Shown here: piece by piece, positions 357 through 25,609 of the stretch
How positions within the stretch are numbered: the stretch's first letter is position 1
Layout: each line of letters begins with the position of its first letter
Source: Planctomycetota bacterium
GTDB lineage: Bacteria; Planctomycetota; Planctomycetia; Pirellulales; UBA1268
Direction of reading: 5' to 3'
Length of the DNA stretch: 34,730 nt
NCBI GenBank assembly: GCA_018970605.1
Contig: JAGWWA010000019.1
Location: 1 to 34,730, forward strand
Made by a program: the position numbers and the translations under genes
Notes under the pieces: model-generated
The model's input: the letters and a program-made list of their open reading frames with translations, nothing else
What the model was told of the DNA's origin: nothing
The model's database searches: none

Positions 357-488
357 GGGGCTGCCAGTGCCCCGGGAGCAGGCGTTGCTGACGAGCGCAG
401 CCATGAATGGCGGAGCGACGTCAGCATCGAGCGAACGGAGCCCAGGATGGGCGGAGTGAGCGTCCTGCGACGGGGCGATGGCAGCCCC
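357..488 (+). repeat. 130-bp palindromic element, copy A
   Basis: The ends GGGGCTGCCAGTGCCCCG and CGGGGCGATGGCAGCCCC form a long outer stem with only a two-base interruption, one position of which is a G-T wobble. Inside are two arms: an outer TGCTGACG/CGTCAGCA pair enclosing GCC-ATGAAT-GGC, and GCCC-AGGAT-GGGC. The plan matches copies B to F, but the arm-2 stem is inverted in sequence, showing compensating change. This copy is more diverged than the others. Confidence 0.8.
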
Positions 489-560
489 GAGCCCACGCAA
501 GAGCCCGCGGACTTCCTGCCGGTCGGCTTCCCCGAACCGCGGATGTCCGCCGGCATCCAC

Positions 561-569
561 TGCTATCAT
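561..569 (+). promoter_or_regulatory. Possible extended -10 promoter for the VOC gene
   Basis: TGCTATCAT is an extended -10 element (TGn followed by TATCAT) and would place a transcript start about 28 bases before the ATG at 604, just before the ribosome site GGGAG at 591-595. There is no convincing -35 hexamer, so the call rests on one motif and its position. Confidence 0.35.
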
Positions 570-603
570 CCGCATCCGTCACGCACCTCCGGGAGTCCCA
601 CCG

Positions 604-1140
604 ATGCATCGCCTCGTCCTCGCCGCCCTGCTCGCCTGCTCCGCCCTGCCCTGCCTCGCCGCCGAGCCCGCCGCGTTTCCACGCACCACGATCGACCTCG
701 GCTGCGTCGTCACCGACCTCGACACGTCGGTCCGCTTCTACACCGACGGGATCGGCTTCCGCGAACTCCCGGGCTTCTCGGTTGACGGGCCGCTCGCCGC
801 CGACGCCGGCCTCACCGACTCAAAGCCGCTCACGATCCGCGTGCTCGTGCTCGGCGAGGGCGATTCCGCGACCAAGCTCAAGCTCATGCAGGTGGCCGAC
901 ACGGCCCCGCGGCCAGGCGATAACGAGTTCATCCACTCACACACCGGTTTCCGTTACCTGACGATCATGGTGGCCGACACCGACGCGGTGCTCGCCAGGC
1001 TCGCGAAACTGGGCGTGAAGCCGCTTGCCAAGTCGCCGGTCGCATTGCCCGACCATCTCGCCAAAGGCATGCATCTGACGTGCGTCCGCGACCCCGACGG
1101 CAACCTCGTCGAACTGATCGGCCCGCGGCCGACCCGGTGA
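604..1140 (+). CDS. Secreted VOC (glyoxalase/bleomycin-resistance fold) protein
   Basis: The 178-residue product begins with a signal peptide (hydrophobic run about residues 4-15, ending CLAAEP) and then a single vicinal-oxygen-chelate domain. VOC hallmarks are the opening strand with LGCVVTDLDTSVRFYTD, the second half opening with YLTIMVADTDAVLARL, and the closing DPDGNLVELIGP. VOC proteins bind a metal and act as lyases, dioxygenases, isomerases or binding proteins; nothing here fixes the substrate, and export to the periplasm is less usual for the family. The ATG at 604 is chosen because GGGAG lies 8 bases upstream and because it gives a proper signal peptide; a longer frame from 478 would not. 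It is convergent with cysC with no gap: the TGA ends at 1140 and the cysC stop begins at 1141. Confidence 0.85.
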   Translation: MHRLVLAALLACSALPCLAAEPAAFPRTTIDLGCVVTDLDTSVRFYTDGIGFRELPGFSVDGPLAADAGLTDSKPLTIRVLVLGEGDSATKLKLMQVADTAPRPGDNEFIHSHTGFRYLTIMVADTDAVLARLAKLGVKPLAKSPVALPDHLAKGMHLTCVRDPDGNLVELIGPRPTR

Positions 1141-1818
1141 TCACCGCGGCGAAATCTTTCCATGCCGCTCCAGCCAGGCGATCACCTGGGCGGCCAATGC
1201 ATCGGGCGGATTCGCCGCCGAGTCGACCACCAGTTCCGGTGTCAGGGGTTCCTCGTAGGGATCGTCGATGCCGGTGAAGCCCTTGATCTCGCCGGCGCGT
1301 GCTTTCTTGTAGAGCCCCTTGGGGTCGCGGCCCTCGCAGACCTCGAGCGGAGCCTTCACGTAGATCTCCACGAAATCACCCGGCGCGAGCAGCCGGCGGA
1401 CGGCGTCGCGGTCGCGACGGTAGGGGCTGATGAAGGCGGTCAGGGCGATGATGCCGGCCTGGGCGAAGAGGTCGGCGACGGAGCCGATTCGCCGGATGTT
1501 CTCCTCGCGGTCGGCGGCACCGAAGCCCAACCCGAATCGCGCGGCAAACTCCTTCCCGTGCCGCTCCTCGAGCATCGCCGGTGCGGCGCTGAGGCCGTGG
1601 CGGACGTTGTCGCCGTCGAGCACGAACGTCCGGCACCCCCGGGCATGGAGGCCGCGGTCCACGGCGTTGGCCAGCGTGCTCTTGCCGCAGCCGGAAAGGC
1701 CCGTGAACCAGAGCACGCAGCCCTTGTGGCCCGCCGCCGCCTCACGATCGGCCCGGCTCACGGCGTGCTCGTGCCAGCGGACATCGACCACCTCGCCATC
1801 CCGCTTCGTCTCAGCCAT
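1141..1818 (-). CDS. cysC: Adenylylsulfate (APS) kinase
   Basis: APS kinase phosphorylates adenylylsulfate to PAPS in the cytoplasm, activating sulfate for reduction or for sulfo-transfer. The 225-residue product has the P-loop GLSGCGKST (residues 40-48), [10 protein letters not shown] (67-76), [10 protein letters not shown] (103-112) and the ISPYR motif with the conserved serine at 131. Between NVRHGL and DREEN there is an insertion of about 18 residues relative to the compact bacterial enzyme. The start at 1818 has the ribosome site GGAGAAGGA immediately upstream. The gene follows the PDZ gene by 29 bases and is probably cotranscribed with it. No sulfate adenylyltransferase (cysD, cysN or sat) is in the window. 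Confidence 0.93.
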
Positions 1819-1847
1819 GTTCCTTCTCCATGCCGGCCCGGGGCCAC

Positions 1848-2828
1848 TCACCACGCGTCGAGCCGCACCAGGCACTCGATCCGCTCAGGCTCACCGTCCG
1901 CCGTGCCATCGCGACGAGCGACATCGAGTCGCACCACGTCGCCAGGCGCGCGATCCCCGAGCCGCGTCGTCAGTTCTTCGAAACTCGTGACGTCGACGCC
2001 GTCGATCGACACCACCACGTCGCCGCTCCGCAGGCCCGCCTGATCGGCGGCAGAGCCGGGTTCCACGGTGCGGATTTCGCACCGCCCGCCAAACACGGTG
2101 GAACTCACGCCGAGCCTGCCCCCGCGGCGGACGTCGATCCGTGCATCGGGCAGCCGCTCGGCCAGGAGCCTGGCCTCGGCCGGCCCGGCCCCCGTCCCAA
2201 ACAAGTCGATCCGCTGGACACCCCGCAGGCTCCCGAGCACGGCAAGCGTGTCGGCATCGACCGGCACGCCGTGCATGCTCACCGCCGCCAGCCGCTGCAG
2301 GTCACCGATCAGACGAATATCGGCCGGCGCGCCCCGCCAGGCCGCATGGAACTCGACCTCGAGACCACGGCCGTCGACGGGTGGACGCTCACGAAAGGCC
2401 GCGCCGAGCGACTCGAGCCGTTCACGGGCCGTCGCGGCGCGGCCAAGGCGGTGAAACTCCGTCGCAGCGGCAGCCAGTCGTCGCACCGCTCCGCCGCCGT
2501 CGGCGGCGAGCCGCTCCAGGCTCTCCTCGGCGGCCACGACCGTGCCTTCGTCGTTGGCGTCGAGCATCTGCCGCAGCACCTCGATGCCGCGACTGGCCAC
2601 CTCGAGATCACCATCACGGATCGCCCGCTCCAGCGGTACGGTCGCGGCCTTTCCCTCGTCCACGAGCGACCGGGCGGCGAACTCGCGCCGGGCAAACTGG
2701 TCTGCTCCCAGCTGCCGGACCCATGCATCCACGTCGGCAGCCGCTCCAACGGGCGCACCGCCGATGCAGGCCGCTGCGAGCCCCGTCGCGAGCGGGCGGA
2801 TCAGCCACGTGGTCGGTCGGCCAGCCAT
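1848..2828 (-). CDS. Secreted PDZ-domain protein with HEAT-like helical region
   Basis: The 326-residue product starts with a signal or anchor segment (about residues 8-30, [15 protein letters not shown]). An alanine-rich helical region with repeats such as [19 protein letters not shown] and [15 protein letters not shown] follows, resembling HEAT or armadillo helices (about 40-130). The C-terminal 90 residues form a PDZ domain: [20 protein letters not shown], then [20 protein letters not shown]. There is no protease triad, so it is probably a scaffold or substrate-binding protein in the cell envelope. The start at 2828 has GGAGG four bases upstream, with a TATATT-like -10 a little further up. 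The gene is divergent from the radical SAM gene. Confidence 0.8.
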
Positions 2829-2913
2829 GAATCCTCCGGATCGTGCCGAATATAACAGCCGCCGGACGGCATCGGCCGCGGGTGTAGGATTGAACCATCC
2901 GCCCACACCGCCC

Positions 2914-4953
2914 ATGACGCTCCCGATCACGCCGCCGCCGCGCCCCTGCCCGCCGCTCCCCACGTCGCGGGCAGAGATGGCGGCGCGCGGCTGGGACTCC
3001 GTTGACGTGGTCCTCGTCAGCGGCGATGCCTACGTCGACCATCCGAGCTTCGCCAACGGACTCATCGGGCGGTTGCTTGAGGCCGCCGGATTCCGTGTGG
3101 CGGTGCTCGCCCAGCCCGACTGGAGCACCTGCGAGGCGTGGCGACAGTTCGGCCGCCCACGGCTCTTCTTCGGCATCTCGGCCGGCAACATGGACTCGAT
3201 GATCAACCACTACACGGCAAACCGGAAGGTGCGGAACGACGACGCCTACTCGCCGAACGGCGAGATCGGACGCCGGCCCGACCGGGCGACCCTCGCCTAC
3301 TGCCAGCGATCGCGCGAGGCGTTTCCCGGAGTGCCCGTCGTGGCCGGCGGCGTCGAGGCCAGCCTGCGGCGGATCGCCCATTACGACTACTGGAGCGACA
3401 CGGTCCGCCGCTCCATCATCCTCGACTCGAAGGCCGACGTGGTGGTCTTCGGCATGGGCGAGCGGACGGTGCTGGAGGTGGCCCGCGGTCTCGACGCCGG
3501 AAAAACCGTCAAGGATCTTCGCGGCATCCGCGGCGTGGCCTACAGGCTCGGCGCGAGCGAGCCGCCGCCGGTCGGCCCCGACACGCTCGAACTGCCGACA
3601 TACGAGTCGGTCACGAGCGACAAACTCGCCTTCTGCGAGATGACGCGGATCTCGCATCTCGAGACGAATCCGCACAATGCCCGCCGGCTCGTGCAGCGGC
3701 ACGGCCGCGAGGCGGTGGTGGTCAATCCACCGGCGCTGCCCCTTGAAGAGTCCGAGATGGACCAGGTCTACAGCCTCCCCTTCACGCGGAGGCCGCACCC
3801 GGCCTACGGCGCGGCGCGGATCCCGGCCTTCGAGGTCGTGGAGCACAGCGTGCAGATCATGCGGGGTTGCTTCGGCGGCTGCACGTTCTGTTCGATCACG
3901 GCCCACGAGGGACGAATCATCCAGAGCCGTTCGCAGGAATCGGTGATCACCGAGATCAAGCTCCTCGCCGCCCAGCCCGGATTCAAGGGAACGGTCTCCG
4001 ACATCGGCGGCCCGACGGCCAACATGTATCAGATGCGGTGCACGCGGCCCGAGGTGGAGGCGAAGTGCCGCCGGCTGTCGTGCGTGCATCCCACGGTCTG
4101 CAAGCTTCTCGGCACGAACCACGGCCCGCTCAAGGACCTGATGCGGGAGGCCCGCACGGTCGAGGGCGTGAAGCGGGTGCTCGTCGCCAGCGGAGTGCGG
4201 ATGGACCTCGCCCGCCGCGACCCCGAGTACCTCGAGGAACTCGCCGCCCATCACGTCGGCGGTCACCTCAAGGTGGCCCCGGAGCACACCGACCCCGAGG
4301 TTCTGAACCTCATGAAGAAGCCCTCGGCCGACGACTACGTCGAGTTCGACAAGGCCTTCAAGGACGCCAGCCGCCGCGTCGGCAAGAAGCAATACACCGT
4401 CCCCTACTTCATCGCCAGCCACCCCGGCAGTGGGATCGAGCAGATGATCGACCTGGCGGTGTTCCTCAAGCGCAACGGCTACAAGCCCGACCAGGTGCAG
4501 GACTTCATCCCCAGCCCGTTCGACATCGCGGCCTGCATGTACCACACCGGGCTCGACCCGATGACGCGGGAGCCGGTGACGATCACGAAGGGGCTCCGCG
4601 ACCGGCGGACGCAGCGGGCGCTCCTGCAGTTCTTCAAGCCGGAGAACTACTTCGAGGTCCGGCGGGCACTCGAACAGGCCGGCCGCCATGACCTGATCGG
4701 CTCGGGCTGCGACTGCCTGATCCCGGCACGGCCACCGAAGGAGGCACTCGACCGCAAGCGGAGCGAGGCGACGCGGGCTTTCACGGAGGAAACGTCGGGC
4801 GACCACTTGAGAGGCGGCCCCGCCGCGGGCCGCGAAGGGAGAGGCGGCCCCGCCACGGGCCGCGATCCCTCTGCGGGCAAGACACCCCGAAAGCAAGGCC
4901 GCCAACGGAAGAGCGTCGGCTATCGCCCCAAGCGGCCCGGACAGAGCCACTAG
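2914..4953 (+). CDS. YgiQ-family radical SAM protein
   Basis: The 679-residue product carries the radical SAM cluster motif CFGGCTFC (Cys319, Cys323, Cys326), which binds the 4Fe-4S cluster that cleaves S-adenosylmethionine. Family features include the N-terminal [51 protein letters not shown], and the late [18 protein letters not shown]. Length and order match the YgiQ/UPF0313 family, whose reaction is not established. The last 65 residues are a basic, low-complexity tail ending [12 protein letters not shown] and include a 30-bp tandem duplication (4809-4868). The ATG at 2914 is chosen because the longer frame runs antisense through the PDZ gene. Confidence 0.92.
4809..4868 (+). repeat. 30-bp tandem duplication inside the radical SAM gene
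   Basis: Two adjacent 30-base units (4809-4838 and 4839-4868), nearly identical, encode [10 protein letters not shown] and [10 protein letters not shown] in frame. Because the unit is ten codons, the duplication keeps the reading frame. It lies in the disordered, basic C-terminal tail, where length change is tolerated. Confidence 0.75.
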
Positions 4954-5054
4954 TAAACGTCGCGTGAGTCCCCACAGATAGGTAACCGGGTATCGTAGTA
5001 TCCTGGTCACGCGGACGTTTTCATGGGGAGCGCCGTCAACCATCGCCCATCCGC

Positions 5055-5155
5055 CAGGAAGCCCCGAGCGCCAGCGAGGGGATGGGAGTTGGTGTCAGAA
5101 GCGACCGTGGCGGTGTGTCGTGCCCGAACCCCTCGCTCCCGTTCGAGGCTTTCTG
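5055..5155. repeat. Two copies of the 27-bp box in opposite orientation
   Basis: A minus-oriented copy of the 27-bp box lies at 5055-5081 and a diverged plus-oriented copy at 5129-5155. They sit in the 369-base gene-free stretch before the methyltransferase gene. No gene-like frame is seen here. Confidence 0.6.
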
Positions 5156-5173
5156 ATGGGGTCGGCGAGGCGT

Positions 5174-5264
5174 GCGAGACGGTACCCGTGCCTGAAGCCG
5201 GCATCCGGAAATCAGAGGGCAGGAGGGCCGCAGCGAACGTCCGGCGACGGGGCTGGGCAGGCCC
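5174..5264 (+). repeat. Degenerate, shortened copy of the palindromic element (copy G)
   Basis: This stretch has a left end resembling CCCGTGCC, the second-arm hairpin in the form GGGC-AGGAG-GGCC, the conserved CGAACGTCCGGCGA string at 5232-5245, and a right end GGGGCTGGGCAGGCCC. The first internal arm is largely missing, so it is about 40 bases shorter than complete copies. It ends about 60 bases before the methyltransferase start. Confidence 0.65.
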
Positions 5265-5322
5265 GAACCTCAACTGACAGTCGCACCGATCGGATGCTCC
5301 CGGCAGCAACCCGGACAGTGAG

Positions 5323-6417
5323 TTGACCGTGATCAAATACCTCGGCTCCAAGCGGCTGCTGCTCGACCTGATCGGCGATGCCATCGAGCGGGTGGCACCG
5401 GGGCCGAGCGTCGTCGACCTTTTCAGCGGCACGTCGCGCGTGGGCCACGCCCTCAAGCGGCGTGGCTTTCGCATCGTCGCCAACGACCACAATGCCTACG
5501 CCAACACGCTGGCACGCTGCTACGTCGAAGCCGACCGTGATGACGTCGAACACGACGCTCTCCGCCTGATCGACGAGTTCAATCGGCTCCCAGGAACGCC
5601 CGGCTATTTCACAGAAACCTTCTGCGAGCGGTCTCGATTCTTCCAGCCCAGAAACGGCGCCCGCATCGACGCGATCCGCGAGGAGATCGCCGCCAAGGGG
5701 CTGCGGCCCGACCTCGAGGCGGTGGTGCTCGTGTCGCTTATGGAGGCGGCCGATCGGGTCGATTCCACGACCGGCGTGCAGATGGCCTACCTCAAGCAAT
5801 GGGCACCGCGGGCCTTCAACGACCTGGAACTCCGAATGCCCGACATCCTGCCGCGGCCGAAGGCGGGCCGAAGCGCAGCCCTCTGCCTCGACGCGCTCGA
5901 CGCTGCACGCCGCACGCCCGCCGACGTCGCCTACGTCGATCCGCCGTACAACCAGCACTCGTATCTGGGCAACTACCACGTCTGGGAGTCGCTCGTCCGC
6001 TGGGACAAGCCCGAGGTCTACGGCGTGGCCTGCAAGCGAGCCGACTGCCGGGAGCGGCGGAGCGTGTTCAACTCGCGGCCACGATTCGACGCGGCCATGC
6101 TGGAACTCCTCGCCGCCATCCGGGCCCCGGTGGTGGTCGTGTCGTTCAGCAACGAGGGCTGGCTTGCCCGCGAGCGGCTCGAGGCGATGCTTGCGGGGTT
6201 GTTTGGCGGCCAGGCTCACGTGGCGACGCTCGCCACCGACTACCGCCGCTACGTGGGCGCCCAGATCGGCATCCACAACCTGCAGGGAGAGAAGGTTGGG
6301 AAGGTGAGCCATCTCCGAAACACCGAATACCTCTTCATCGCGGCCGAACGACCACTGGCCGGTGCGATCGACGATCTGGCCGCCGCGGCGCGAACCGCCA
6401 GCCCGGCGGATGCGTAG
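5323..6417 (+). CDS. D12-class adenine-specific DNA methyltransferase
   Basis: This 364-residue enzyme should transfer a methyl group from SAM to adenine N6 in a specific DNA site. It opens with IKYLGSKRLLLDLI, the Dam/D12-class start that helps form the SAM pocket, then motif I DLFSGTSRVGHALK (about residues 33-46) and the catalytic DPPY at 206-209, followed by NQHSYLGNYH. Family proteins are usually 260-370 residues. The first codon is TTG at 5323; GTG at 5329 is equally possible, and the only ribosome site is a weak GGACAG. No restriction endonuclease or specificity gene is adjacent, so it looks like an orphan methylase, lying in repeat-rich DNA, which is compatible with transfer. Confidence 0.88.
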   Translation: MTVIKYLGSKRLLLDLIGDAIERVAPGPSVVDLFSGTSRVGHALKRRGFRIVANDHNAYANTLARCYVEADRDDVEHDALRLIDEFNRLPGTPGYFTETFCERSRFFQPRNGARIDAIREEIAAKGLRPDLEAVVLVSLMEAADRVDSTTGVQMAYLKQWAPRAFNDLELRMPDILPRPKAGRSAALCLDALDAARRTPADVAYVDPPYNQHSYLGNYHVWESLVRWDKPEVYGVACKRADCRERRSVFNSRPRFDAAMLELLAAIRAPVVVVSFSNEGWLARERLEAMLAGLFGGQAHVATLATDYRRYVGAQIGIHNLQGEKVGKVSHLRNTEYLFIAAERPLAGAIDDLAAAARTASPADA

Positions 6418-6450
6418 AAGCACCGGATCAGCCTCCCAGGAAAACTCTCC

Positions 6451-6741
6451 ATGCGCCTCGCTCGTTCGCTCGCCGTGCCGCTCCTCGCCGTCGCCGTGGT
6501 CGCCGCCGGAGGGCGATGCGCATCGGCCCGCAGCCCGCGCAATCCCTACTCGAGCTTCAACCTGTCGGGCATCAACTACGGGGCGATGCAGTGGGAGCGG
6601 GCCCAGCGGCAGGGCAAACGGGTCTGGCCGTACTACAACTCGCCGACACCGCGGTATTCCCGAGGGGGCAGCGTCGGTGTCGCAGGGGGTGTGATCGGCG
6701 GCGGCACTGTCCGCACCAGTTCCCGCGGCTGGCGGCGCTGA
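6451..6741 (+). CDS. Small secreted protein, unknown function
   Basis: The 96-residue product has a signal peptide ([20 protein letters not shown], cleavage probably near SARS). The mature part is rich in Tyr, Trp, Arg and Gly: GINYGAMQWERAQRQGKRVW followed by PYYN, then a Gly-Ser-Arg tail. I do not recognise a named family. The polar aromatic composition suggests an envelope-associated peptide. ATG 6451 has AGGAAA upstream. It follows the methyltransferase by 33 bases and may be cotranscribed, although its role seems unrelated. Confidence 0.7.
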   Translation: MRLARSLAVPLLAVAVVAAGGRCASARSPRNPYSSFNLSGINYGAMQWERAQRQGKRVWPYYNSPTPRYSRGGSVGVAGGVIGGGTVRTSSRGWRR

Positions 6742-6824
6742 GCGCGCGGGCGTCGATCAGCCGTCGCTCCGGATTCGTTCGGGGCCTGAGCGTGGTGGGG
6801 CCTGATGATGCTTCAGTCCCGCAT

Positions 6825-6852
6825 CCCCTCGCTGGCGCTCAGGGCTTCCTGA
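6825..6852 (+). repeat. 27-bp dispersed box
   Basis: This copy differs by one base from the box at 309-335. It precedes palindromic element copy B by about 27 bases, the same arrangement and similar spacing as the first box has with copy A. It falls in the 289-base gap between the small secreted protein and the GNAT-like gene. Confidence 0.65.
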
Positions 6853-6878
6853 TTGCCTCGGCATAGCGTTCGAGGCGA

Positions 6879-7010
6879 GCGGCTGCCCGTGCCAATCGAG
6901 CGGCGTAGGAAACCGAGCGGAGTCTGGAGGGCGAAGCGAGGTTTCCTGAGAGTGAGCGAAGGGCAGGATGCCCCGCAGCGAACGTCCAGCGAGATGGCAC
7001 GGGCAGCCCC
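6879..7010 (+). repeat. 130-bp palindromic element, copy B
   Basis: The ends GGCTGCCCGTGCCA (6881-6894) and TGGCACGGGCAGCC (6995-7008) are perfectly complementary over 14 bases. Internal arm 1 is closed by AGGAAACC/GGTTTCCT, with a decayed apical hairpin. Arm 2 is GGGC-AGGAT-GCCC. The conserved CGAACGTCC follows arm 2. The copy ends about 20 bases from the stop codon of the downstream minus-strand gene, where it could form the 3' end of that transcript. Confidence 0.85.
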
Positions 7011-7030
7011 GAGCAGCGTGGCGGACACAT

Positions 7031-8164: not shown

Positions 8165-8257
8165 GGAAACCTCCCTGTTTTCGTGCATCTTGGGTGGCCG
8201 CGGTCATGGCCGTCAAATCGGCCCGCGGCGACGGTGAGCCGCCGCGGCCGCCCGCCG

Positions 8258-10752: not shown

Positions 10753-10883
10753 GGGGCTGCCCGTGCCAATCGAGCGGCGTAGGAAACCGAGCGAAGCCAG
10801 GATGGCGAAGCGCGGTTTCCTCCGAGTGAGCGTAGGGCAGGATGCCCGCAGCGAACGTCCGGCGAGATGGCACGGGCAGCCCC
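10753..10883 (+). repeat. 130-bp palindromic element, copy C (best preserved)
   Basis: The terminal inverted repeats GGGGCTGCCCGTGCCA (10753-10768) and TGGCACGGGCAGCCCC (10868-10883) are a perfect 16-bp match. Arm 1 is closed by AGGAAACC/GGTTTCCT, perfect over eight bases, and tipped by GCC-AGGAT-GGC. Arm 2 is GGGC-AGGAT-GCCC. CGAACGTCCGGCGAGA then leads to the right end. The two arms carry the same AGGAT loop. This copy is the clearest model for the family. Confidence 0.9.
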
Positions 10884-13749: not shown

Positions 13750-13820
13750 GGCCCGATTAGACCAACGACGCGCAGGCTGAAAAGACCGCTGTGCTCCTCC
13801 ACGCCGAACCTACGGCCAGC

Positions 13821-13853
13821 CCCCACCGCTCACGCGATTGGGCTTCCTGATGC
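13821..13853 (+). repeat. Partial copy of the 92-bp repeat, joined to element copy D
   Basis: The first 28 or so bases of the 92-bp unit (CGCTCACGCGATTGGGCTTC then CTGATG) appear here and run directly into GCAGCGGGCGAGGGG, the left flank of palindromic element copy D. It therefore ties the two repeat families together. Confidence 0.7.
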
Positions 13854-13862
13854 AGCGGGCGA

Positions 13863-13991
13863 GGGGTGCCCGTGCCCTGGAGCCGGGCTTGGCGGCCAGC
13901 GAAGCCAGGATGGCGAAGCGCAGCCGGCATGCAGTGAGTGAAGGGCAGGATGCCCGAAGCGAACGTCCGGCCCCAGGGCATGGGCAGCACC
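13863..13991 (+). repeat. 130-bp palindromic element, copy D
   Basis: The left end GTGCCCGTGCCCTGG and right end CCAGGGCATGGGCAGCAC pair with one G-T wobble. The inner part of this stem (CCCTGG/CCAGGG) differs on both sides from copies B and C (CCA/TGG), a compensating change. Arm 1 keeps GCC-AGGAT-GGC, closed by GCCGGGCT/AGCCGGC with a bulge. Arm 2 is GGGC-AGGAT-GCCC, followed by CGAACGTCCGG. Confidence 0.85.
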
Positions 13992-14021
13992 GAGCCGAGC
14001 CGAGCGATCCGGATTGCCCCT

Positions 14022-14280
14022 ATCGCTCACGCGATTGGGCTTCCTGATGCCGATCGCAGGAAGCGTAACGCCGTCAGGCGTACGGCCATCCCATGCTAGA
14101 CCACCCAGCCCCCATCGCTCACGCGATTGGGCTTCCTGATGCCGATCGCAGGAAGCGTAACGCCGTCAGGCGTACGGCCATCCCATGCTAGACCACCCGG
14201 CCCCCATCGCTCACGCGATTGGGCTTCCTGATGCCGATCGCAGGAAGCGTAACGCCGTCAGGCGTACGGCCACCCCATGC
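14022..14280 (+). repeat. 92-bp tandem repeat array, 2.8 units
   Basis: Units start at 14022, 14114 and 14206 with an exact 92-base period and only a few differences. Each holds two hairpins: CTTCCTG (14040-14046) with CAGGAAG (14057-14063), and ACGCC-GTCA-GGCGT (14068-14081). The last unit is cut short by the 3' end of the histidine kinase gene. The near identity points to recent expansion. No protein-coding frame is credible. Confidence 0.92.
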
Positions 14281-14286
14281 CCGACG

Positions 14287-15219
14287 CTACCCCAGCGTGC
14301 GCGACGCCGCCGGCAACTCCACCTCGAAAACGGTGCCGGGAGGCGGCTGGCGACCGCGAACGAGCACCTTGCCCCGCATCTGCTTCACGAGAGCCTTCAC
14401 GAGAAACAGGCCCAGACCGGTGCCTGGCGTGGATCGCTCGAGTTCGCTGCCGAGGCGGTGAAACCGGCGGAAGATCAGCGGGCGGAGCGGGATCGGAATG
14501 CCCGGGCCGTTGTCGGCCACGGCAATCCGCACGCGGCCGGAGTTGGTGTGACTGACGGTCACCACGACCCGCGGATCGGGAAGCGAGTATTTCACCGCGT
14601 TGTCGAGCAGGTTGCGGATCACGATCTCGACGTCGGCGGTTTGACCCACAACCCTGAAAGGCCCATCCGCGGCGGCCTCGATGGCGATCGTGTCTTCGGC
14701 CACCCCGTGCCGTTGGACCACGGCGGCGCGGACGCCGTTGAGCACGGCTTCCACGTCGGCCGCATCGCCCCCCGCCTGCGGTCGGCGCTGGAGCGTCTTG
14801 GCGGCGTCGAGGAGGTGGTCGATCAGCGTGTCGAGTCGCTCCACGTCCTGGAGCATGATCCGGTGGAAGTCGGCCTGCTGCTCGGCGGGCACGGCCCGGC
14901 GGGTGAGCGTCTGCAGCGAGAGCTTGAGCGAGGCGAGCGGGCTCTTGAGTTCATGGGTCACGCTGTCGATGAAGTTGCTCTGCCGCTGCGACAGCGCGAT
15001 CGCCTTGACCGTGAGCGCAAGATAGACGATCACCCCGGCGAGCACGATGACGAGCAGGGCCACGCCGACGCCGAGGACGGTCCAGTAGAAGACCGCATTG
15101 CGCGAACCGAGAGCGGCCGCGATGCTGACGAGCACCCAGCCCACCGTCAGCGCGATCAACGCCGCGATCAACACCACCCCGAGGAGGATCGGCCAGCCGA
15201 ATGAGCGACGCGGTTCCAT
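14287..15219 (-). CDS. Membrane sensor histidine kinase
   Basis: The 310-residue kinase has two transmembrane segments (about 10-36 and 43-70) joined by a very short loop, so it has almost no periplasmic sensor domain. The dimerisation/phosphoacceptor domain has His89 in SVTHELKSPLASL. The ATPase domain has the N box NLLDN (203-207), DNGPG (236-240) and GTGLG (266-270). It lacks an adjacent regulator; the OmpR-type regulator at 8954-9706 is the only one in the window. ATG 15219 is preceded by AGGAAA. The tandem repeat array sits immediately beyond its stop codon. Confidence 0.93.
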   Translation of the reverse strand: MEPRRSFGWPILLGVVLIAALIALTVGWVLVSIAAALGSRNAVFYWTVLGVGVALLVIVLAGVIVYLALTVKAIALSQRQSNFIDSVTHELKSPLASLKLSLQTLTRRAVPAEQQADFHRIMLQDVERLDTLIDHLLDAAKTLQRRPQAGGDAADVEAVLNGVRAAVVQRHGVAEDTIAIEAAADGPFRVVGQTADVEIVIRNLLDNAVKYSLPDPRVVVTVSHTNSGRVRIAVADNGPGIPIPLRPLIFRRFHRLGSELERSTPGTGLGLFLVKALVKQMRGKVLVRGRQPPPGTVFEVELPAASRTLG

Positions 15220-17190: not shown

Positions 17191-17196
17191 GTCGAG

Positions 17197-17634: not shown

Positions 17635-17682
17635 CCTTCGCTCCTGCGAATGCGTCAGCGACGCACGCTCTGAAATCGCCAT

Positions 17683-18264: not shown

Positions 18265-18359
18265 AGGCGATGCTCCCCGCGGGTGCGGGACTGGAATCGG
18301 AAGACTACACTTTACGTTCTTCGCCGCCCTACGTCCCCGCCCCCCGGATCCTTCCCCGC

Positions 18360-19583: not shown

Positions 19584-21943
19584 ATGCGATGAATGCGGCA
19601 AGCCTGACGACCCGCCTGCTCTGCGTCGCCGCAACGTCCGCGGCGCTCTTCTCCTCGCCGACACCGGCGGCCGACTGGCCCGATTGGCGAGGCCCCAGGC
19701 AAGACCGCCACTACGACGGCCCCCCGCTCGTGACTTCGTTCGATCCGGAGGCGGGAACGAACGTGCTCTGGAAGAGCGACGAAGCCGGCGGCATCTCCAC
19801 GCCGGTGATCATGCACGGCAAGCTCTACACGCTGGTCCGCCACAAGCCGGGCACGAAGGAGGAGGCGGAGAAGGTGCTCTGCCTCGACGCCGCCACCGGG
19901 AAAAAACTCTGGGAAAACGTGTTCAATGTCTATCTCTCGGACGTGCCGGCCGAGCGGGTCGGCTGGTCGGCGGTGATCGCCGATCCCGCGTCGAACACGG
20001 TCTTCGCGCACGGCGTCTGCGGCGCGTTCACGGCGATCGACGCGGCCACCGGAAAGACGAAGTGGCAACGGTCGCTCCATGAGGAGTTTGGGTTTCTCTC
20101 CACCTACGGCGGCCGCACGAACATCCCGGTGGTCTTCGAAGATCTCGTGATCGCCAGCGCCGTCGTCACCGGCTGGGGCGACACCGCCCGGCCCGCCCAC
20201 CGTTTCCTCGGGATGGACAAGGCCACGGGCGAGGTCCGCTGGATGAACGGCACGAAGGAGTTGCCCGAAGACACCACCTACAGCACGCCCTCGCTCGCCG
20301 TGCTCGGCGGCCAGGCGGCGCTCGTCTTCGGATCGAGCGACGGGAGCGTCTGGAACTTCCAGCCAAGGACGGGCAAGGCCGTCTGGAATTTCAAGCTCTC
20401 GCGTCGCGGGCTCAACGTCGCGCCGCTGGTCGATGGCGACAGCATCTTCATCTCCCAGGCGGAGGAGAACCTCGACAACACGTCCATGGGCTCGGTGACC
20501 CGGTTCAGAGGCGTGGGCTCGGGCGACATCACGCCCACGAACGCCGTCTGGCAGAAGAAGGGCGTGATGGACGGCAGGTCGATGCCGGTGGTGCTCGGTG
20601 ATCGCGTCTACTTCGTGGACGACGGCGCGAAGGTCTACACCTTCGACAAGGAGACCGGCGAGCCGATCGGCAAGCCGGTGAAGCTTCTCGGGACGATCGT
20701 GCGGGGCAGCCCGCTGGTGGCGGATGGCAAGCTCTATGTCTGCTCGACGAGCGGCTGGCACGTGCTCGAGCCGACGAAGGACGGCTTGAAGTTCGTCAAC
20801 CGGATGCGGCTTGAAGAGGAAGACGAGGTCACCGCCTCGCCCATCGCCTGCAGCGGCCTTCTCTACCTGACCACGGGCGCCCGGCTCTACTGCCTGGGCG
20901 AGACGATGGCGGGCTCGGCCTCATCGGGCCCGGCCAATCCTGGTCCTGACATCGTGTCCGCCGCCGCGGGCGGCACGCCAGGCGAGCCGGCGTGGGTGCA
21001 GGTCGTGCCGGCCGAGGCGCAGATCGCCGCCGGAGCGACGGTGCCCCTCAAGGTGCGGCTCTACGACGCCGCGGGCCGGTTTGTGAAGGAATCAGCCGCC
21101 GACTTCGCCGCATCGGCGGGCGGGATCTCGCAGGAGGGCGTCTACACCGCTCCCACCACGGGCCACGCCGCCGCGATCATCACGGCGAAGGTCGGCGATC
21201 TCGAAGGGAAGGCGCGGATTCGCTCGATGCCGCCGCTCCCCTGGCGTTTCGACTTCGAAGACATCCCACTCGCCGCGGATCCGAAGACGGGCGTGGTGAA
21301 GGGGGAACCGCCGCTCCCCTGGATCGGCATGCGATATCGCCACGCGGTCCGCGAGGTCGATGGCTCGAAGTGCCTCGTGAAGGTGACCACGATCCCCAAA
21401 GGCACCCGGAGCCAGGGCTGGATCGGGCCGATCGGGCTCCACGACTACTCCGTGCAGGCCGACTTCCGAGCCCAGGAGACCGGCGTGGAAAAGCCGGGGT
21501 CGCCCGCCTCCGACGCGCCGAAGTCCGCCGCCACCGACGCCGATGCCTTCGCCAAGAAGTTCGGCAACCCGGCGGCGCTCGAGAAGGCGAGGATGCCCGA
21601 CATGGGCCTCGTCGCACAGCGGTACACGCTCGACCTGATGGGTGCGAGCCAGCAGCTGCAGCTTCGCTCCTGGCCGCCGCAGGTAGCCACCTATTTCTCG
21701 AAGACGATCCCCTTCGCCTGGGAGGCGGGACGCTGGTACACCGTGAAACTCGAGGCCCGCACGAGAGACGGCGCGGCGGTGCTCCGCGGCAAGGTCTGGC
21801 CGCGGGGCGAGAAGGAGCCGGAGGCCTGGACGATCGAAGGCGTTCACGAGGCGGGCAACCTCCAGGGCAGCCCGGGTTTCTTCGGCAACTCGAAAGACTC
21901 CGAGATCTACATCGACAACGTGTTCGTGGAGGCGGTGAAATGA
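19580..21943 (+). CDS. Secreted PQQ-like beta-propeller protein with Ig-like and C-terminal LamG-like regions
   Basis: The 787-residue exported product starts with a signal peptide (1-31, ending PTPAADW). A PQQ/BamB-type beta-propeller (about 32-450) has blades such as VLCLDAATGKKLWENVF, AIDAATGKTKWQRSL and VYTFDKETGEPIGKPV. A bacterial Ig-like segment follows (about 470-550), VQVVPAEAQIAAGATVPLKV, then a C-terminal beta-sandwich-like region (553-787) ending GSPGFFGNSKDSEIYIDNVF. Such propellers bind partners or quinone, but no methanol-dehydrogenase active-site set is visible. ATG 19580 overlaps the preceding TGA (ATGA), with GAGGGG upstream. Coupled translation with both neighbours is likely. 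Confidence 0.88.
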   Translation: MNAMNAASLTTRLLCVAATSAALFSSPTPAADWPDWRGPRQDRHYDGPPLVTSFDPEAGTNVLWKSDEAGGISTPVIMHGKLYTLVRHKPGTKEEAEKVLCLDAATGKKLWENVFNVYLSDVPAERVGWSAVIADPASNTVFAHGVCGAFTAIDAATGKTKWQRSLHEEFGFLSTYGGRTNIPVVFEDLVIASAVVTGWGDTARPAHRFLGMDKATGEVRWMNGTKELPEDTTYSTPSLAVLGGQAALVFGSSDGSVWNFQPRTGKAVWNFKLSRRGLNVAPLVDGDSIFISQAEENLDNTSMGSVTRFRGVGSGDITPTNAVWQKKGVMDGRSMPVVLGDRVYFVDDGAKVYTFDKETGEPIGKPVKLLGTIVRGSPLVADGKLYVCSTSGWHVLEPTKDGLKFVNRMRLEEEDEVTASPIACSGLLYLTTGARLYCLGETMAGSASSGPANPGPDIVSAAAGGTPGEPAWVQVVPAEAQIAAGATVPLKVRLYDAAGRFVKESAADFAASAGGISQEGVYTAPTTGHAAAIITAKVGDLEGKARIRSMPPLPWRFDFEDIPLAADPKTGVVKGEPPLPWIGMRYRHAVREVDGSKCLVKVTTIPKGTRSQGWIGPIGLHDYSVQADFRAQETGVEKPGSPASDAPKSAATDADAFAKKFGNPAALEKARMPDMGLVAQRYTLDLMGASQQLQLRSWPPQVATYFSKTIPFAWEAGRWYTVKLEARTRDGAAVLRGKVWPRGEKEPEAWTIEGVHEAGNLQGSPGFFGNSKDSEIYIDNVFVEAVK

Positions 21944-23742
21944 CAATGAAGAAAAGTCTCACGGGCGCCGGGGTTGCCCCCGCCATGTCGCCGGACGTTT
22001 GCTCCGGCCATCCTGGCCTCCGCTCACTCCATGCTGGCTGCGCTTCGCCATCCATGGCTCCGCTGGCCAGCAAGGCCGGCTCCATGGCAGGGGCAACCCC
22101 TCGCAGATTCTTTCCGCGTTGGTTTCAGATGCTGGGCGTCGTCGTGCTCACTGCGTACGCGGCATCGGCCGCCGAATGGAACCAGTGGGGCGGCTCGCCG
22201 AGCCGCAACAACGTGCCCGAGGCGACGAACCTGCCCGTCGAGTGGGCGCCGGGCGACTTCGACCCCGATACCGGGGCATGGGATCCGAAGACGGCGAAGA
22301 ACGTCGCCTGGGTGGCGGCGCTCGGCAGCCAGTCATACGGCAACCCGGTGATCGGCGACGGCAAGGCGTTCGTCGGCACCAACAATGGCAAGGGCTGGCT
22401 GAAGCGGTATCCGCCGGCCACCGACCTCGGCTGCCTGCTCGCCTTCGACGCCACGAACGGCTCGTTTCTCTGGCAGGACTCGAGCGAGAAGCTTCCCACG
22501 GGCCGCGTTCACGACTGGCCGCTGCAGGGCATCTGCTGCGCGCCGCTCGTGGAGGGCGACCGGCTCTGGTACGTCACCAGCCGCGGCGAGGTGAAGTGCC
22601 TCGATACCGCGGGCTTCCGCGACGGCGAGAACGACGGCCCCTTCACCACCGAGAAGGAGCAGGGGCAGGACGAGGCCGACGTCGTCTGGGTGCTCGACAT
22701 GATGAAGCAGCTCGGCGTGTCGCAGCACAACATGTGCTCGTGCAGCGTGACGAGCGCCGGCGACTTCCTGTTCGTCAACACGAGCAACGGCGTGGACGAA
22801 GGCCACCTCAACCTCCCCAACCCCGACGCCCCGAGCTTCCTCTGCCTCGACAAGCGGGATGGTACGGTGCTCTGGGCCGATGGCTCCCCCGGCGCCTACG
22901 TGCTCCACGGCCAGTGGTCGAGCCCGGCCTACGCGGAGCTCGGCGGCGTGCCGCAGGTGCTCTTCGGTGGCGGTGACGGCTGGCTTTATTCGTTCGACGC
23001 CCGTGGGGACGCGGGCAAGCCGAAGCTCCTCTGGCAGTTCGACTGCAATCCGAAGGAGTCGAAGTACACCCTCGGCGGCCGTGCCGACCGAAATCACATC
23101 ATCGGCACGCCGGTGGTACACGACGGGCTCGTCTACATCGCCGTCGGCGAGGACCCCGAGCACGGCGAGGGCGTCGGCCATCTCTGGTGCATCGATCCGA
23201 CGAAGCGGGGCGACGTGTCGAGCGAGCTGGCGCTCTCGCTCGCCGACCCGAACAAGCCGCTGCCCCGGCGCCGCGAACAGGCCGTGATCAAGGAGCAGGG
23301 AGAAGTGGCCCGGCCCAACCCCAACTCGGCCGCCGTCTGGCACTATCCCGGCTTCGACGCGGACGGCAACGGCAAGCTCACCTTCGAGGAGACCATGCAC
23401 CGTACCTGCGGCACCGTGGCGATCCAGGATGGCCTGCTCTACGTCGCCGACTTCAGCGGACTCTTCCACTGCCTCGACCTGAAGACCGGCAAGCCCCACT
23501 GGACCCACGACATGCTCGCCGCCAGTTGGGGATCTCCGCTGATCGCCGACGGCAAGGTCTACATCGGCGATGAAGACGGCGACATCACGATCTTCCAGCT
23601 CGGCACGGAGCCAGAGGTGATCGCCGAAATCAACATGGGCAACAGCGTCTACTCCACGCCGATCGCCGTCGGCGACACGCTCTACATCGCCAACAAGAGC
23701 CATCTCTTCGCCATCCGGGAGGGCGCCGCGCCGGCGCCGTGA
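21940..23742 (+). CDS. Secreted PQQ-like beta-propeller protein with EF-hand loop and repeat-derived N-terminus
   Basis: The 600-residue product is a PQQ-type beta-propeller: VAWVAALGSQSYGNPVIGDG, CLLAFDATNGSFLWQDSS, FLCLDKRDGTVLWADGSP, FHCLDLKTGKPHWTHDM. A canonical EF-hand calcium loop, DADGNGKLTFEE (473-484), is inserted late in the propeller. The start overlaps the previous stop (ATGA) and has GGAGG seven bases upstream, so it is well supported. Residues 9-53 are encoded by palindromic element copy E, placed between the basic MTMKKSL and the hydrophobic LGVVVLTAYAASA signal core. An internal ATG at 22084 could start a shorter form (MAGATPRRFFPRWFQM) with a normal-length signal peptide. 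Confidence 0.88.
   Translation: MTMKKSLTGAGVAPAMSPDVCSGHPGLRSLHAGCASPSMAPLASKAGSMAGATPRRFFPRWFQMLGVVVLTAYAASAAEWNQWGGSPSRNNVPEATNLPVEWAPGDFDPDTGAWDPKTAKNVAWVAALGSQSYGNPVIGDGKAFVGTNNGKGWLKRYPPATDLGCLLAFDATNGSFLWQDSSEKLPTGRVHDWPLQGICCAPLVEGDRLWYVTSRGEVKCLDTAGFRDGENDGPFTTEKEQGQDEADVVWVLDMMKQLGVSQHNMCSCSVTSAGDFLFVNTSNGVDEGHLNLPNPDAPSFLCLDKRDGTVLWADGSPGAYVLHGQWSSPAYAELGGVPQVLFGGGDGWLYSFDARGDAGKPKLLWQFDCNPKESKYTLGGRADRNHIIGTPVVHDGLVYIAVGEDPEHGEGVGHLWCIDPTKRGDVSSELALSLADPNKPLPRRREQAVIKEQGEVARPNPNSAAVWHYPGFDADGNGKLTFEETMHRTCGTVAIQDGLLYVADFSGLFHCLDLKTGKPHWTHDMLAASWGSPLIADGKVYIGDEDGDITIFQLGTEPEVIAEINMGNSVYSTPIAVGDTLYIANKSHLFAIREGAAPAP
21970..22100 (-). repeat. 130-bp palindromic element, copy E, inside a coding sequence
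   Basis: On the plus strand the ends are GGGGTTGCCCCCGCCATG (21970-21987) and CATGGCAGGGGCAACCCC (22083-22100), paired at 17 of 18 positions with a G-T wobble at the other. Read on the minus strand it has arm 1 with GCC-ATGGAT-GGC, arm 2 GGCC-AGGAT-GGCC and the string AACGTCCGGCGA, as in the intergenic copies. It is wholly contained in the propeller gene and adds about 44 codons without a stop. Confidence 0.9.
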
Positions 23743-25412
23743 TCGTCATGCGCCGCGCCGTCCCCTCACTCGTCGCTTCCCTGCTCGCCATCGCCTGGAT
23801 GCTGCCCGTGGCAGCCACGGAGCCCGCATCCCCCGGCGATCTCGTCCGCTCGGCGAAACGAATCACGCTGCTTGGCGACTCGATCACCCAGGACGGCCGC
23901 TGGGTGGCCGATCTTGCGGCCTGGATGGAGGAGCGGGGGCTCACGGCCGAGGTGATCAACGTGGGCCTGTCGAGCGAGACGACCTCGGGACTCACCGAGG
24001 TGCTGCACGCCGGTGGAAAGTTTCCGCGGCCCGACCTCTTCGACCGGCTCGACCGCGTGCTGCGGGTGACGAAGCCCGATCTCGTTTTGGCGATGTACGG
24101 AATGAACTGCGGCACCTACCTGCCGCTCGACGAGGAGCGGTTCGCGAAGTTCCGGAGCGGGATCGAGCGGCTGCACGCCGCCGTCGAGAAGTCGGGCGCG
24201 AAGATCATCCACCTCACGCCCCCCGTCTACGACAAGCGGCCCGACAATCCCGGTCCGGCCGGTGACGCCGACTACGACGCGGTGCTCACTGCCTACTCCG
24301 ACTGGCTGCTTGCACGGCGGGCCGACGGCTGGGCGGTGATCGACGTGCACGGACCGATGAAGGCGGCGCTGGCGGAGCGCAGAAAGGCCGATCCTGCGTT
24401 TACCTTCACTCCCGACTGCATCCATCCGAACGACGACGGCCACTGGGCGATCTGCCGGGCGGTGATTGCCGGCCTCGGAGATACGCAGGCGGCGGCGAGC
24501 GCCGACCTGCCGACCACGCTGGCTCCGTTCCTGCCGGAGGTGACGACGCGAATGAAGCTGCTTCGCGACGCCTACCGGGAGGCGGCGGGCCATGCCCGCC
24601 CCGGCACGCCGAAGGGCCTGCCGATCGCCGCGGCCGAGGCGGAGGCCCGCCGGCTCACGGAGTCCCTCCGGTCCCGGCGGCTGCAACTCCGCGGCACGAA
24701 GCACGAAAGCGGCGAATGGCGGATGGCGATCGAGTGGCCGCGACCGAAGGTGGTGGCCCCGGGCCCCGCCCCTGAAAAGCCGGCGACGATTCCCGCCGAC
24801 GCCATCGTGCTCTTCGACGGCAAGGACATGTCGGCCTGGGAGAACGGCGGAAACTGGCCGGTGGCCGACGGCGTGGTGACCGTAGGCAAGGGAGCGATCG
24901 TGTCGAAGCAGCCCTTCGGCGACTGCCAGGTGCACGTCGAGTTTCGAATGCCGGCACCGGCCTCCGGGACGGGCCAGGGCCGGGGCAACTCCGGCATCTT
25001 CCTGATGGGCAAGTACGAGATCCAGGTCCTCGACTCGTTCGAAGACGGCACCGACGGTCCGCTCACCTATCCCGACGGCCAGTGTGGGGCCCTCTACAAG
25101 CAGCGGCCGCCGGCGGTCAATGCCTGCCGCAAGCCGGGCGAGTGGCAGACCTACGACATCCTGTTCACGCGACCGCGATTCGCCGCCGACGGCACGCTCG
25201 AAAAGTCGGGCCGCGTGAGTGTGCTCCACAACGGCATCGCGATCCACTCAGACACCGTGATCCTCGGTGAAACATTCTGGCACCAGCCACCGGGCTACCA
25301 GCAGCACGCCGACGCCTTGCCGCTCATGATCCAGGATCACGGCAACCCGGTGCAGTTCCGCTCGATCTGGGTCCGGCCCTTCGAACCGGTCGCACCGAAG
25401 CAGCTTCCGTAG
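23739..25412 (+). CDS. Secreted SGNH hydrolase fused to DUF1080 (LamG-like) domain
   Basis: The 557-residue product has a signal peptide (1-27), then an SGNH/GDSL hydrolase domain with catalytic Ser48 in LLGDSIT, the glycine and asparagine blocks in NVGLSS and YGMNCG, and the Asp/His block DCIHPNDDGH. SGNH enzymes are esterases, often removing acetyl groups from glycans. From about residue 355 there is a DUF1080 domain (AIVLFDGKDMSAWENGG, FGDCQVHVEFRMPAP, GNSGIFLMGKYEIQVLDSFE), which has a concanavalin-like fold and occurs in sugar-related hydrolases. GTG 23739 overlaps the previous TGA; ATG 23748 is nearly as likely. Last gene of the operon. Confidence 0.9.
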   Translation: MIVMRRAVPSLVASLLAIAWMLPVAATEPASPGDLVRSAKRITLLGDSITQDGRWVADLAAWMEERGLTAEVINVGLSSETTSGLTEVLHAGGKFPRPDLFDRLDRVLRVTKPDLVLAMYGMNCGTYLPLDEERFAKFRSGIERLHAAVEKSGAKIIHLTPPVYDKRPDNPGPAGDADYDAVLTAYSDWLLARRADGWAVIDVHGPMKAALAERRKADPAFTFTPDCIHPNDDGHWAICRAVIAGLGDTQAAASADLPTTLAPFLPEVTTRMKLLRDAYREAAGHARPGTPKGLPIAAAEAEARRLTESLRSRRLQLRGTKHESGEWRMAIEWPRPKVVAPGPAPEKPATIPADAIVLFDGKDMSAWENGGNWPVADGVVTVGKGAIVSKQPFGDCQVHVEFRMPAPASGTGQGRGNSGIFLMGKYEIQVLDSFEDGTDGPLTYPDGQCGALYKQRPPAVNACRKPGEWQTYDILFTRPRFAADGTLEKSGRVSVLHNGIAIHSDTVILGETFWHQPPGYQQHADALPLMIQDHGNPVQFRSIWVRPFEPVAPKQLP

Positions 25413-25430
25413 TGCAGGGTGACAACCTGC
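25411..25430. repeat. Short intergenic hairpin, AGGTT/AACCT type
   Basis: GCAGGGTGACAACCTGC forms a hairpin with one mismatch, beginning at the stop codon of the SGNH-DUF1080 gene. It is related to those at 187-209 and 25732-25752. No T-run follows. Confidence 0.45.
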
Positions 25431-25479
25431 GCATGCATCGTGCCGCGGCAACCCTGGAAGGGTCATGAGTGACAAGCGA

Positions 25480-25609
25480 GGGGCTGCTCATGCCCTCGAG
25501 CGGGCTATGGGAGCAAGCGCAGCCAGGATGGCGAAGCGCAGCGGACATGCAGAGAGTCGAGGCCTGGAGGGCCGAGACGAACGTCCGACGAGAGGGCATG
25601 GGTAGCCCT
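25480..25609 (+). repeat. 130-bp palindromic element, copy F
   Basis: The ends GGGCTGCTCATGCCCTC and GAGGGCATGGGTAGCCC pair along their whole length with two G-T wobbles. Arm 1 is GCC-AGGAT-GGC. Arm 2 is GGCC-TGGAG-GGCC, changed on both sides relative to copies B to D. The ACGAACGTCCGACGAGA string leads to the right end. It lies in the 371-base gap after the secreted operon, which has no gene. Confidence 0.85.

What the first reader, a model, noticed from the sequence alone, without database searches (positions are those of the whole stretch)
357..25609. Dispersed 130-bp palindromic repeat family with covarying stems
Six complete copies (357-488, 6879-7010, 10753-10883, 13863-13991, 21970-22100 minus, 25480-25609) and two fragments (5174-5264, 25660-25725) share one plan: 14-18-bp inverted ends, an arm tipped by GCC/GGC, a second arm with a four-base GGGC/GCCC-type stem, and a conserved AACGTCCGGCGA string before the right end. 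The stems change on both sides between copies (arm 2 is GGGC/GCCC, GGCC/GGCC or GCCC/GGGC; the outer stem is CCA/TGG or CCCTGG/CCAGGG), and several differences leave G-U pairs. That is the pattern expected when a folded RNA, not just DNA, is kept. Length is nearly constant (129-132). No transposase is present, so copies are probably moved in trans.
Basis: seen in the sequence. Interest (0 to 1): 0.88.

Follow-up and report, generated by a model that had tools for sequence, protein, structure and literature searches.

The report
Mobile, fork-oriented structured DNA repeat
A freshwater planctomycete genome carries about 150 scattered copies of a 130-letter sequence that folds into a three-armed shape and has jumped into gaps between genes without an enzyme of its own; in one relative with a fresh burst, 69 of 70 copies that share a contig point the same way, which suggests that it spreads while DNA is being copied.

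Summary
In detail: six full copies and two fragments of one structured repeat. It is common: at least 147 matches in the 2.86-Mb genome and matches in 34 of 37 genomes of its family, against 0 of 23 genomes from other families of the order. Covariation survives a tree-based null: 6 of 8,911 column pairs pass, all in stems. In the outer stem G·U beats A·C 54:11, but not in the rest (47:35). Copies are intergenic, near random against gene direction (42 sense, 36 antisense), without target duplication, and polymorphic: one window site lacks it in 17 of 21 congeners. In one relative 69 of 70 copies sharing a contig are co-oriented; at home the bias is weaker (86 of 117) and in G028 not seen. The one Y1-like gene found at home is flanked by another small hairpin. 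Best reading: a non-autonomous ERIC/BIME-like mosaic element spread in trans at replication forks; the enzyme is inferred. No Rfam match.

The parts
357..488 (+). full copy 1 of the 130-bp element (family A)
   Evidence: R1 130.5 bits; z -7.05
6879..7010 (+). full copy 2
   Evidence: 128.5 bits; z -6.00
10753..10883 (+). full copy 3; 91-94% identical to seven other copies of the genome, homology stopping near the element ends in most
   Evidence: 142.8 bits; z -7.69
13863..13991 (+). full copy 4
   Evidence: 131.4 bits; z -6.15
21970..22100 (-). full copy 5; the site has no element in 17 of 21 congeners
   Evidence: 143.9 bits; z -7.82
25480..25609 (+). full copy 6
   Evidence: 131.1 bits; z -6.79
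5174..5264 (+). fragment: a short piece of the left end plus the right (3') half, middle missing
   Evidence: (5193-5267, E 2e-12)
25660..25725 (+). fragment: 3' end only, about 50 nt downstream of full copy 6, same direction
   Evidence: 25664-25710, E 8e-7
307..336 (+). family B small hairpin (REP-like, tail CTTCCTGA) upstream of copy 1, same direction
5127..5156 (+). family B-like hairpin (80% to the copy at 307) upstream of the fragment at 5174
6823..6852 (+). family B hairpin upstream of copy 2, same direction
13816..13853 (+). family B hairpin upstream of copy 4, same direction
14016..14291 (+). three tandem 92-nt units, each starting with a family B hairpin, downstream of copy 4

Best explanation
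A non-autonomous mobile element. Shown: about 136 bp with sharp ends; an outer stem of about 18-21 bp and two arms built alike (GC, a GNA/GNA internal loop, a tip stem); many diverse copies whose stems are kept by compensatory change; in the outer stem the '+' strand takes G-U far more often than A-C; intergenic; no target duplication; polymorphic between congeners; polar along the chromosome in some genomes, '+' mostly on the C-rich strand. Inferred: an enzyme supplied in trans recognises the folded single strand when it is exposed at replication forks and pastes copies into forks in one orientation, as IS200/IS605 elements do and REP systems are thought to do. The likeliest enzyme type is a Y1 (HUH) transposase of the planctomycete 'class 3' kind, whose probable own hairpin (family B) forms mosaics with this element. 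Selection against promoter damage would explain why divergent gaps are avoided.
For: At least 147 matches in the genome; 34 of 37 family genomes, own included. 6 of 8,911 column pairs pass E<=0.05 against a tree-based null: 4 in the R1 structure, 2 (29-75, 30-74) in the base of arm 1 of the MFE fold of copy 5. Outer-stem events G-U 54, A-C 11: p 2e-4 against rates of unpaired sites, 6e-8 against 1:1. Direct repeats at the ends equal shuffled pairings, 171 copies. Polymorphic site: element in own, G009, G008 and G011, a 3' remnant of about 45 nt in G005, none in 17 of 21 relatives. G060: 69 of 70 copies co-oriented in contigs with two or more, 72 of 73 with single-copy contigs; 0 of 20,000 random draws as extreme. 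'+' lies on the C-rich strand in 6 of 7 contigs sampled and opposite to the S3 ribosomal gene on contig C4. Own genome: 86 of 117 copies on the C-rich strand, contigs 33 to 12 with 6 ties, p 4e-5; 83 of 102 follow the contig majority, 73.8 expected, p 0.003. 72 element-B pairs within 100 bp, at 50 of 117 copies, all co-oriented. Y1 gene with inverted B-type hairpins on both sides; it matches NCBIfam IS200 and REP-transposase models below their cut-offs and ends YVRECQ, fitting the Y----Q signature of class 3 (PMC6006769 section 27).
Against: No Y1 gene examined is flanked by this element (0 matches in 10 loci of at most 1.5 kb either side). Y1 hits do not track the element: several element-rich genomes have none and G022 has four Y1 hits but no element match; one search also missed the weak home gene, so its zeros are soft. 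B hairpins with no element within 1 kb show no polarity (29 of 52, p 0.53), and element polarity fades if only contigs of stronger skew are used (60 of 83, p 0.004 at skew 0.02; 18 of 26, p 0.17 at 0.04). Polarity is weak in G018 (39 of 47, p 0.016) and not seen in G028 (10 of 13, p 0.49). At one site the own copy and three congeners' copies point opposite ways. Outside the outer stem G-U and A-C are near equal (47:35 events). The strand favoured by G-U is, by GC skew, not the lagging-strand template that Y1 enzymes use. No GTAG foot. The Y1-flanking hairpins are of the CTCGGGG subtype (40 of 137 B tags); the commoner subtype is CGCGATTGGG (78 of 137); they share only the tail and general plan.
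Confidence: 0.45

Rival explanations
1. The element moves through an RNA: the '+' strand is transcribed, folds, and is copied or joined into DNA at forks, so it would be a bacterial SINE-like retroelement.
For: G-U over A-C in the outer stem; sites unpaired in the model are about 79% purine on that strand (G 4026, A 3446, C 1126, T 802 branch exposures); of 27 partial copies 21 keep the 3' end, 3 the 5' end, 3 neither.
Against: No PF00078 hit in own, G008, G012, G013, G018, G028, G029, G032, all with many element matches (stricter filters). In 8 of the 10 places I read, the 3' fragment is part of a local [3' end + B] tandem duplication beside a full copy, not an independent truncated insertion. 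G-U excess missing outside the outer stem. No transcript was tested.
Confidence: 0.11
2. A functional polar chromosome signal (in the manner of KOPS or AIMS, names recalled), amplified because cells need it, not a selfish element.
For: 69 of 70 copies polar in G060; some polarity at home.
Against: Weak in own and G018, not seen in G028; no match in 23 genomes of other families of the order; the one site compared is not conserved between congeners.
Confidence: 0.08
3. A cis-acting mRNA element (3'-UTR stabiliser, attenuator or terminator).
For: Intergenic, strongly folded, 63 of 148 placed copies between convergent genes; ERIC is reported to act on mRNA in an orientation-dependent way (PMC2229807, passages).
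Against: 42 sense against 36 antisense; direction agrees with the majority gene strand in only 58 of 117 but with GC skew in a fixed sense in 86 of 117.
Confidence: 0.1
4. A classical MITE moved by a DDE transposase acting on its terminal inverted repeats.
For: Terminal inverted repeats of about 18-21 bp; no enzyme inside; two Eremiobacterota relatives lie inside longer inverted ends.
Against: No target-site duplication above shuffled pairings in 171 copies; polarity with respect to replication is not expected of double-strand cut-and-paste (general knowledge).
Confidence: 0.13

Closest known systems
REP / BIME / REPIN elements with RAYT (TnpA-REP)
   Same: High-copy intergenic palindromes, clusters and, in some lineages, inverted pairs; no enzyme inside; mosaics with other hairpins
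   Different: About 136-nt three-way junction instead of a hairpin of about 20-65 nt; no GTAG foot at the ends; no Y1 gene seen flanked by it (10 loci)
ERIC / IRU (127-bp enterobacterial palindrome)
   Same: Size, palindromic plan, intergenic
   Different: Copy 3 has no match in the E. coli genomes; branching, covarying fold; replication polarity in some genomes
Class 3 TnpA-Y1 with 'atypical secondary structures' (PMC6006769, section 27)
   Same: Reported principally in Planctomycetes, Acidobacteria and Proteobacteria, with structures in high copy (about 600 in Solibacter); the home Y1 ORF ends with a Y----Q motif
   Different: The home Y1 gene is flanked by hairpin B, not by this element; the CnGA foot described there was not recognised by eye on either repeat
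IS200/IS605-derived non-autonomous elements
   Same: No target duplication, strand-specific fold, replication polarity in some genomes
   Different: No IS with matching ends was found (not searched genome-wide); the ends are the base of one long stem, not two subterminal hairpins

Membership tests
REP / BIME (RAYT-associated) | High-copy intergenic palindrome | tested here: met
   at least 147 matches; 1 of 149 placed copies overlaps a called gene
REP / BIME (RAYT-associated) | GT[AG]G foot 5' of the hairpin | tested here: not met
   flank profile of 171 copies: only G at -1 is strongly conserved (92%), -4 to -2 mixed
REP / BIME (RAYT-associated) | Y1 transposase gene flanked by the repeat | tested here: not met
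   0 element matches in 10 Y1 loci; home gene flanked by B-type hairpins
Classical MITE (DDE) | Target-site duplication | tested here: not met
   direct repeats at the ends as in shuffled pairings, 171 copies
Classical MITE (DDE) | Terminal inverted repeats, no coding capacity | tested here: met
   18-21-bp outer stem; about 136 nt
ERIC | Sequence homology to ERIC | tested here: not met
   blastn of copy 3 against E. coli genomes: no match at 1e-5; not aligned to the ERIC consensus itself
IS200/IS605 derivative | Insertion polarity with respect to replication | tested here: inconclusive
   very strong in G060 (69 of 70), moderate at home, weak in G018, not seen in G028
IS200/IS605 derivative | Cleavage tetranucleotide and guide pairing | not testable with these tools
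   needs biochemistry
Class 3 TnpA-Y1 structures | CnGA foot and position beside the class 3 gene | tested here: inconclusive
   foot not recognised by eye; the gene's neighbour is hairpin B
Any Rfam RNA family | Match to its covariance model | tested here: not met
   0 matches at E<=1 in the window; in 6 element-bearing loci a tRNA and one sub-threshold match (18.4 bits, gathering 40), neither to the element
Retroelement | Reverse transcriptase available in element-bearing genomes | tested here: not met
   PF00078 hits in only 6 of 37 family genomes (G002, G009, G015, G017, G020, G023, stricter filters)

The most novel reading that the evidence does not exclude
A bacterial counterpart of a SINE: a branched RNA, selected as RNA, that is built into the nascent lagging strand at forks with host enzymes alone. 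This would fit '+' lying on the C-rich strand, the G-U tolerance of that strand in the outer stem, and the element-rich genomes in which neither a reverse transcriptase nor a Y1 hit was seen.
Probability: 0.08. Interest if true: 0.93.

Novelty: new variant of a known kind. Interest (0 to 1): 0.6.

Why it matters
How palindromic repeats such as REP, BIME and ERIC spread is still poorly understood. This family is large, seems young in one genome (31 copies there share an exact 31-nt core), hints at which strand folds, and in that genome runs almost entirely one way along each contig, so fork-coupled spread becomes directly testable. Related folds in Eisenbacteria and Eremiobacterota suggest use beyond Planctomycetes.

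Tried and rejected
Coding or Rfam explanation: rejected. Virus, plasmid, phage or E. coli origin: the 21-base core was absent from viral contigs; copy 3 unmatched in plasmids, phages, E. coli. Mutation bias as cause of the G-U excess: tested with rates at unpaired sites; the excess remains in the outer stem, but those sites are themselves under selection. 5' truncation as a sign of target-primed copying: 21:3 looked strong, but 8 of the 10 places read are local tandem duplications, so it is not used. A gene that travels with the element: none found. An exactly matching empty site: not obtained; the congeners' gaps could not be aligned by eye to the own flanks. The phylum-wide search scored only 11 candidates per genome with strict filters, so 1 of 294 (own) is weak evidence of absence. 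Matches of G061-G063 to R2 are partly by construction (four of their copies were in its alignment); R1, built from the window alone, gave 48-65 bits there, but these loci had been chosen by the 21-base core; 3 of the 104 core-bearing loci had no R1 match.

Rows dropped: antisense or overlapping duplicates of a better hit were removed before and what builds on them; one search kept 181 of 216 by length, then 101 below 90% identity (used in 66, 68); one search kept 171 of 179; one search left 67 of 216 unplaced at contig ends; one search used 139 of the 147 rows, the weakest eight left out, and for G018 and G028 only rows at E<=1e-12. In one search two of eight ORFs were in a frame that my gene caller does not support.
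Full report
What is there. The window is contig C57 of an unnamed 2.86-Mb, 75.8%-complete genome. The six copies are confirmed, z -6.0 to -7.8. None of the 30 genes called in the window matches a transposase family.

Abundance. Model R1, built from the six window copies, gives 147 matches at E<=0.001 in the own genome from 150 candidates scored, so 147 is a lower bound. Among 60 genomes, own included, it matches 34: 34 of 37 of the own family and 0 of 23 from 19 other families of the order (at most 55 candidates scored per genome). In 1.08 Mb of the own genome, in stretches picked because they hold copies, there are 117 distinct copies.

Structure. An outer stem of 18-21 bp, a short stem, then two arms of one plan: GC, an internal loop GNA/GNA, then a stem closed by an AGGAT-like loop. 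In 101 copies under 90% identity, 3,756 of 4,251 pair cells are Watson-Crick, 157 G-U, 57 A-C, 281 other; 92 more are gapped. Against a null that keeps the tree (own script after the idea of R-scape, 40 replicates), 6 of 8,911 column pairs pass E<=0.05: 88-96, 32-72, 35-69 and 47-56 in the R1 structure, and 29-75 and 30-74 in the base of arm 1 of the MFE fold of copy 5. Four copies of 163 nt carry a 27-nt hairpin extension at the arm-1 tip in two backgrounds.

Which strand folds. In the outer stem, changes away from Watson-Crick pairs lead to G-U 54 times and A-C 11 times; rates at unpaired sites predict 83:52, p 2e-4. In the whole structure the counts are 104 and 46, so outside the outer stem (57 and 11's slightly wider count) they are 47 and 35: no clear excess. 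The '+' strand is thus favoured as the folded one, by the outer stem. RNA fits by pairing chemistry; single-stranded DNA is not excluded.

Where copies sit. With a home-made gene caller: 63 convergent, 42 sense, 36 antisense, 7 divergent, 1 overlapping a gene, 67 unplaced. Gaps of at least 150 bp in the same contigs are 175 codirectional, 78 divergent, 71 convergent. Divergent gaps are avoided; direction against genes is near random.

Mobility. At 21970-22100 the element is in own; G005 keeps only about 45 nt of its 3' end at the same junction; G009, and G008 with G011, carry copies in the opposite direction; 17 of 21 congeners have none, 14 of them with gaps of 11-38 bp. Copies 91-94% identical to copy 3 mostly share no flanks; L006 and L007 share some. 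The boundary is G|C(G/T)(A/C)GGGG...CCCCGAG|C with no target duplication.

Polarity. G060 (Pirellulales M30B53) has 73 matches, 44 of them between 93.5 and 96.9 bits. In contigs with two or more copies 69 of 70 follow the contig majority (72 of 73 counting three single-copy contigs); contigs reach 405 kb; no random draw of 20,000 is as extreme. '+' lies on the C-rich strand in six of seven contigs by stretches sampled; C21 is near zero with the other sign. The one S3 gene, on C4, lies opposite to the neighbouring copies, as expected if '+' is the lagging strand. At home 86 of 117 copies lie on the C-rich strand, contigs 33 to 12 with 6 ties, p 4e-5 with both repeats masked; copies without B within 1 kb, 38 of 58, p 0.027; with skew of at least 0.02, 60 of 83, p 0.004; at least 0.04, 18 of 26, p 0.17; B without the element nearby, 29 of 52, p 0.53. 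By contig majority alone: own 83 of 102 (73.8 expected, p 0.003), G018 39 of 47 (34.0, p 0.016), G028 10 of 13 (9.5, p 0.49). Gene strand does not explain it (58 of 117).

Mosaics and a candidate enzyme. A small hairpin, family B, scored by its tail GGGCTTCCTG, lies within 100 bp of 50 of 117 copies; all 72 such pairs are co-oriented. Two B subtypes occur, CGCGATTGGG (78 of 137 tags) and CTCGGGG (40 of 137). Arrays of [element]-[B]-[3' end of element] recur (8 of 10 places read); in another array full copies alternate with a third palindrome. In G060 a second hairpin module precedes 30 of 31 copies read, and 0-3 tandem copies of the element's last 35 nt plus 7 nt follow. In both genomes these duplications begin near the 'GAACG' that follows arm 2; I cannot explain that. 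The only PF01797 match at home (24.9 bits) lies in a 163-aa ORF with inverted pairs of B-type hairpins, CTCGGGG subtype, on both sides. It fits NCBIfam IS200 (28.2 bits, cut-off 55) and REP-transposase (23.7, cut-off 80) models weakly. Its end YVRECQ fits the Y----Q signature of a class 3 group reported principally from Planctomycetes, Acidobacteria and Proteobacteria and flanked by atypical structures that can be in high copy (PMC6006769: section 27 and passages). So B is probably that enzyme's repeat, and the element may move with it; this link rests on adjacency and co-orientation alone.

Relatives elsewhere. An Eisenbacteria genome (6 matches, two inverted pairs) and two Eremiobacterota genomes (8 and 14) carry the same two-arm plan (see Tried and rejected for the bias). 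Some planctomycete MAGs carry inverted pairs about 23-27 nt apart.

What it is. It works like a REP/BIME or ERIC element, but fails the foot and enzyme-flank tests of REP, and copy 3 has no match in E. coli, plasmid or phage records. I call it a new variant of the palindromic non-autonomous repeat kind. Papers: PMC3733652 and PMC2229807, passages only; PMC3116915 and PMC8266576, listing only. PMC3733652 names REP families in R. baltica, a planctomycete; I did not see their sequences, so identity with parts of these repeats is not excluded. My searches listed no paper whose title or abstract start describes this element; the library is open-access only.

Noticed in passing
window 14016-14291: Three near-identical 92-nt tandem units, each beginning with a family B hairpin, after full copy 4.
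   Followed up: partly
window 84-116 and 152-184: Identical 33-nt direct repeat, starts 68 nt apart.
   Followed up: no
upstream of window copy 6; L187:4440-5080; other own loci: A third dispersed palindrome, family C (CAGGTTGAAAACCTG type), lies beside several copies and alternates with full copies in one array.
   Followed up: no
L188:608-1405: Y1 (HUH) transposase-like ORF with inverted pairs of B-type hairpins on both sides, a REPtron-like unit of possible class 3 type.
   Followed up: partly
L068, L088, L120, L155, L166 and others (M30B53): 0-3 tandem copies of the element's last 35 nt plus 7 nt follow the element; a similar breakpoint is seen in the own genome.
   Followed up: partly
L075:5538-5675, L161:2547-2683: Eremiobacterota copies sit inside inverted ends of the form AGGAGYCTGTCGG...CCGACAGRCTCCT, resembling IS ends.
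   Followed up: no
L182:9326-9488, L179:15263-15425, L274:15403-15565, L272:3320-3482: 163-nt length class with the same 27-nt hairpin extension at the arm-1 tip in two backgrounds, hinting at exchange between copies.
   Followed up: partly
window 5323-6417: D12-class N6-adenine DNA methyltransferase gene (PF02086, E 8e-32) between repeat clusters.
   Followed up: no
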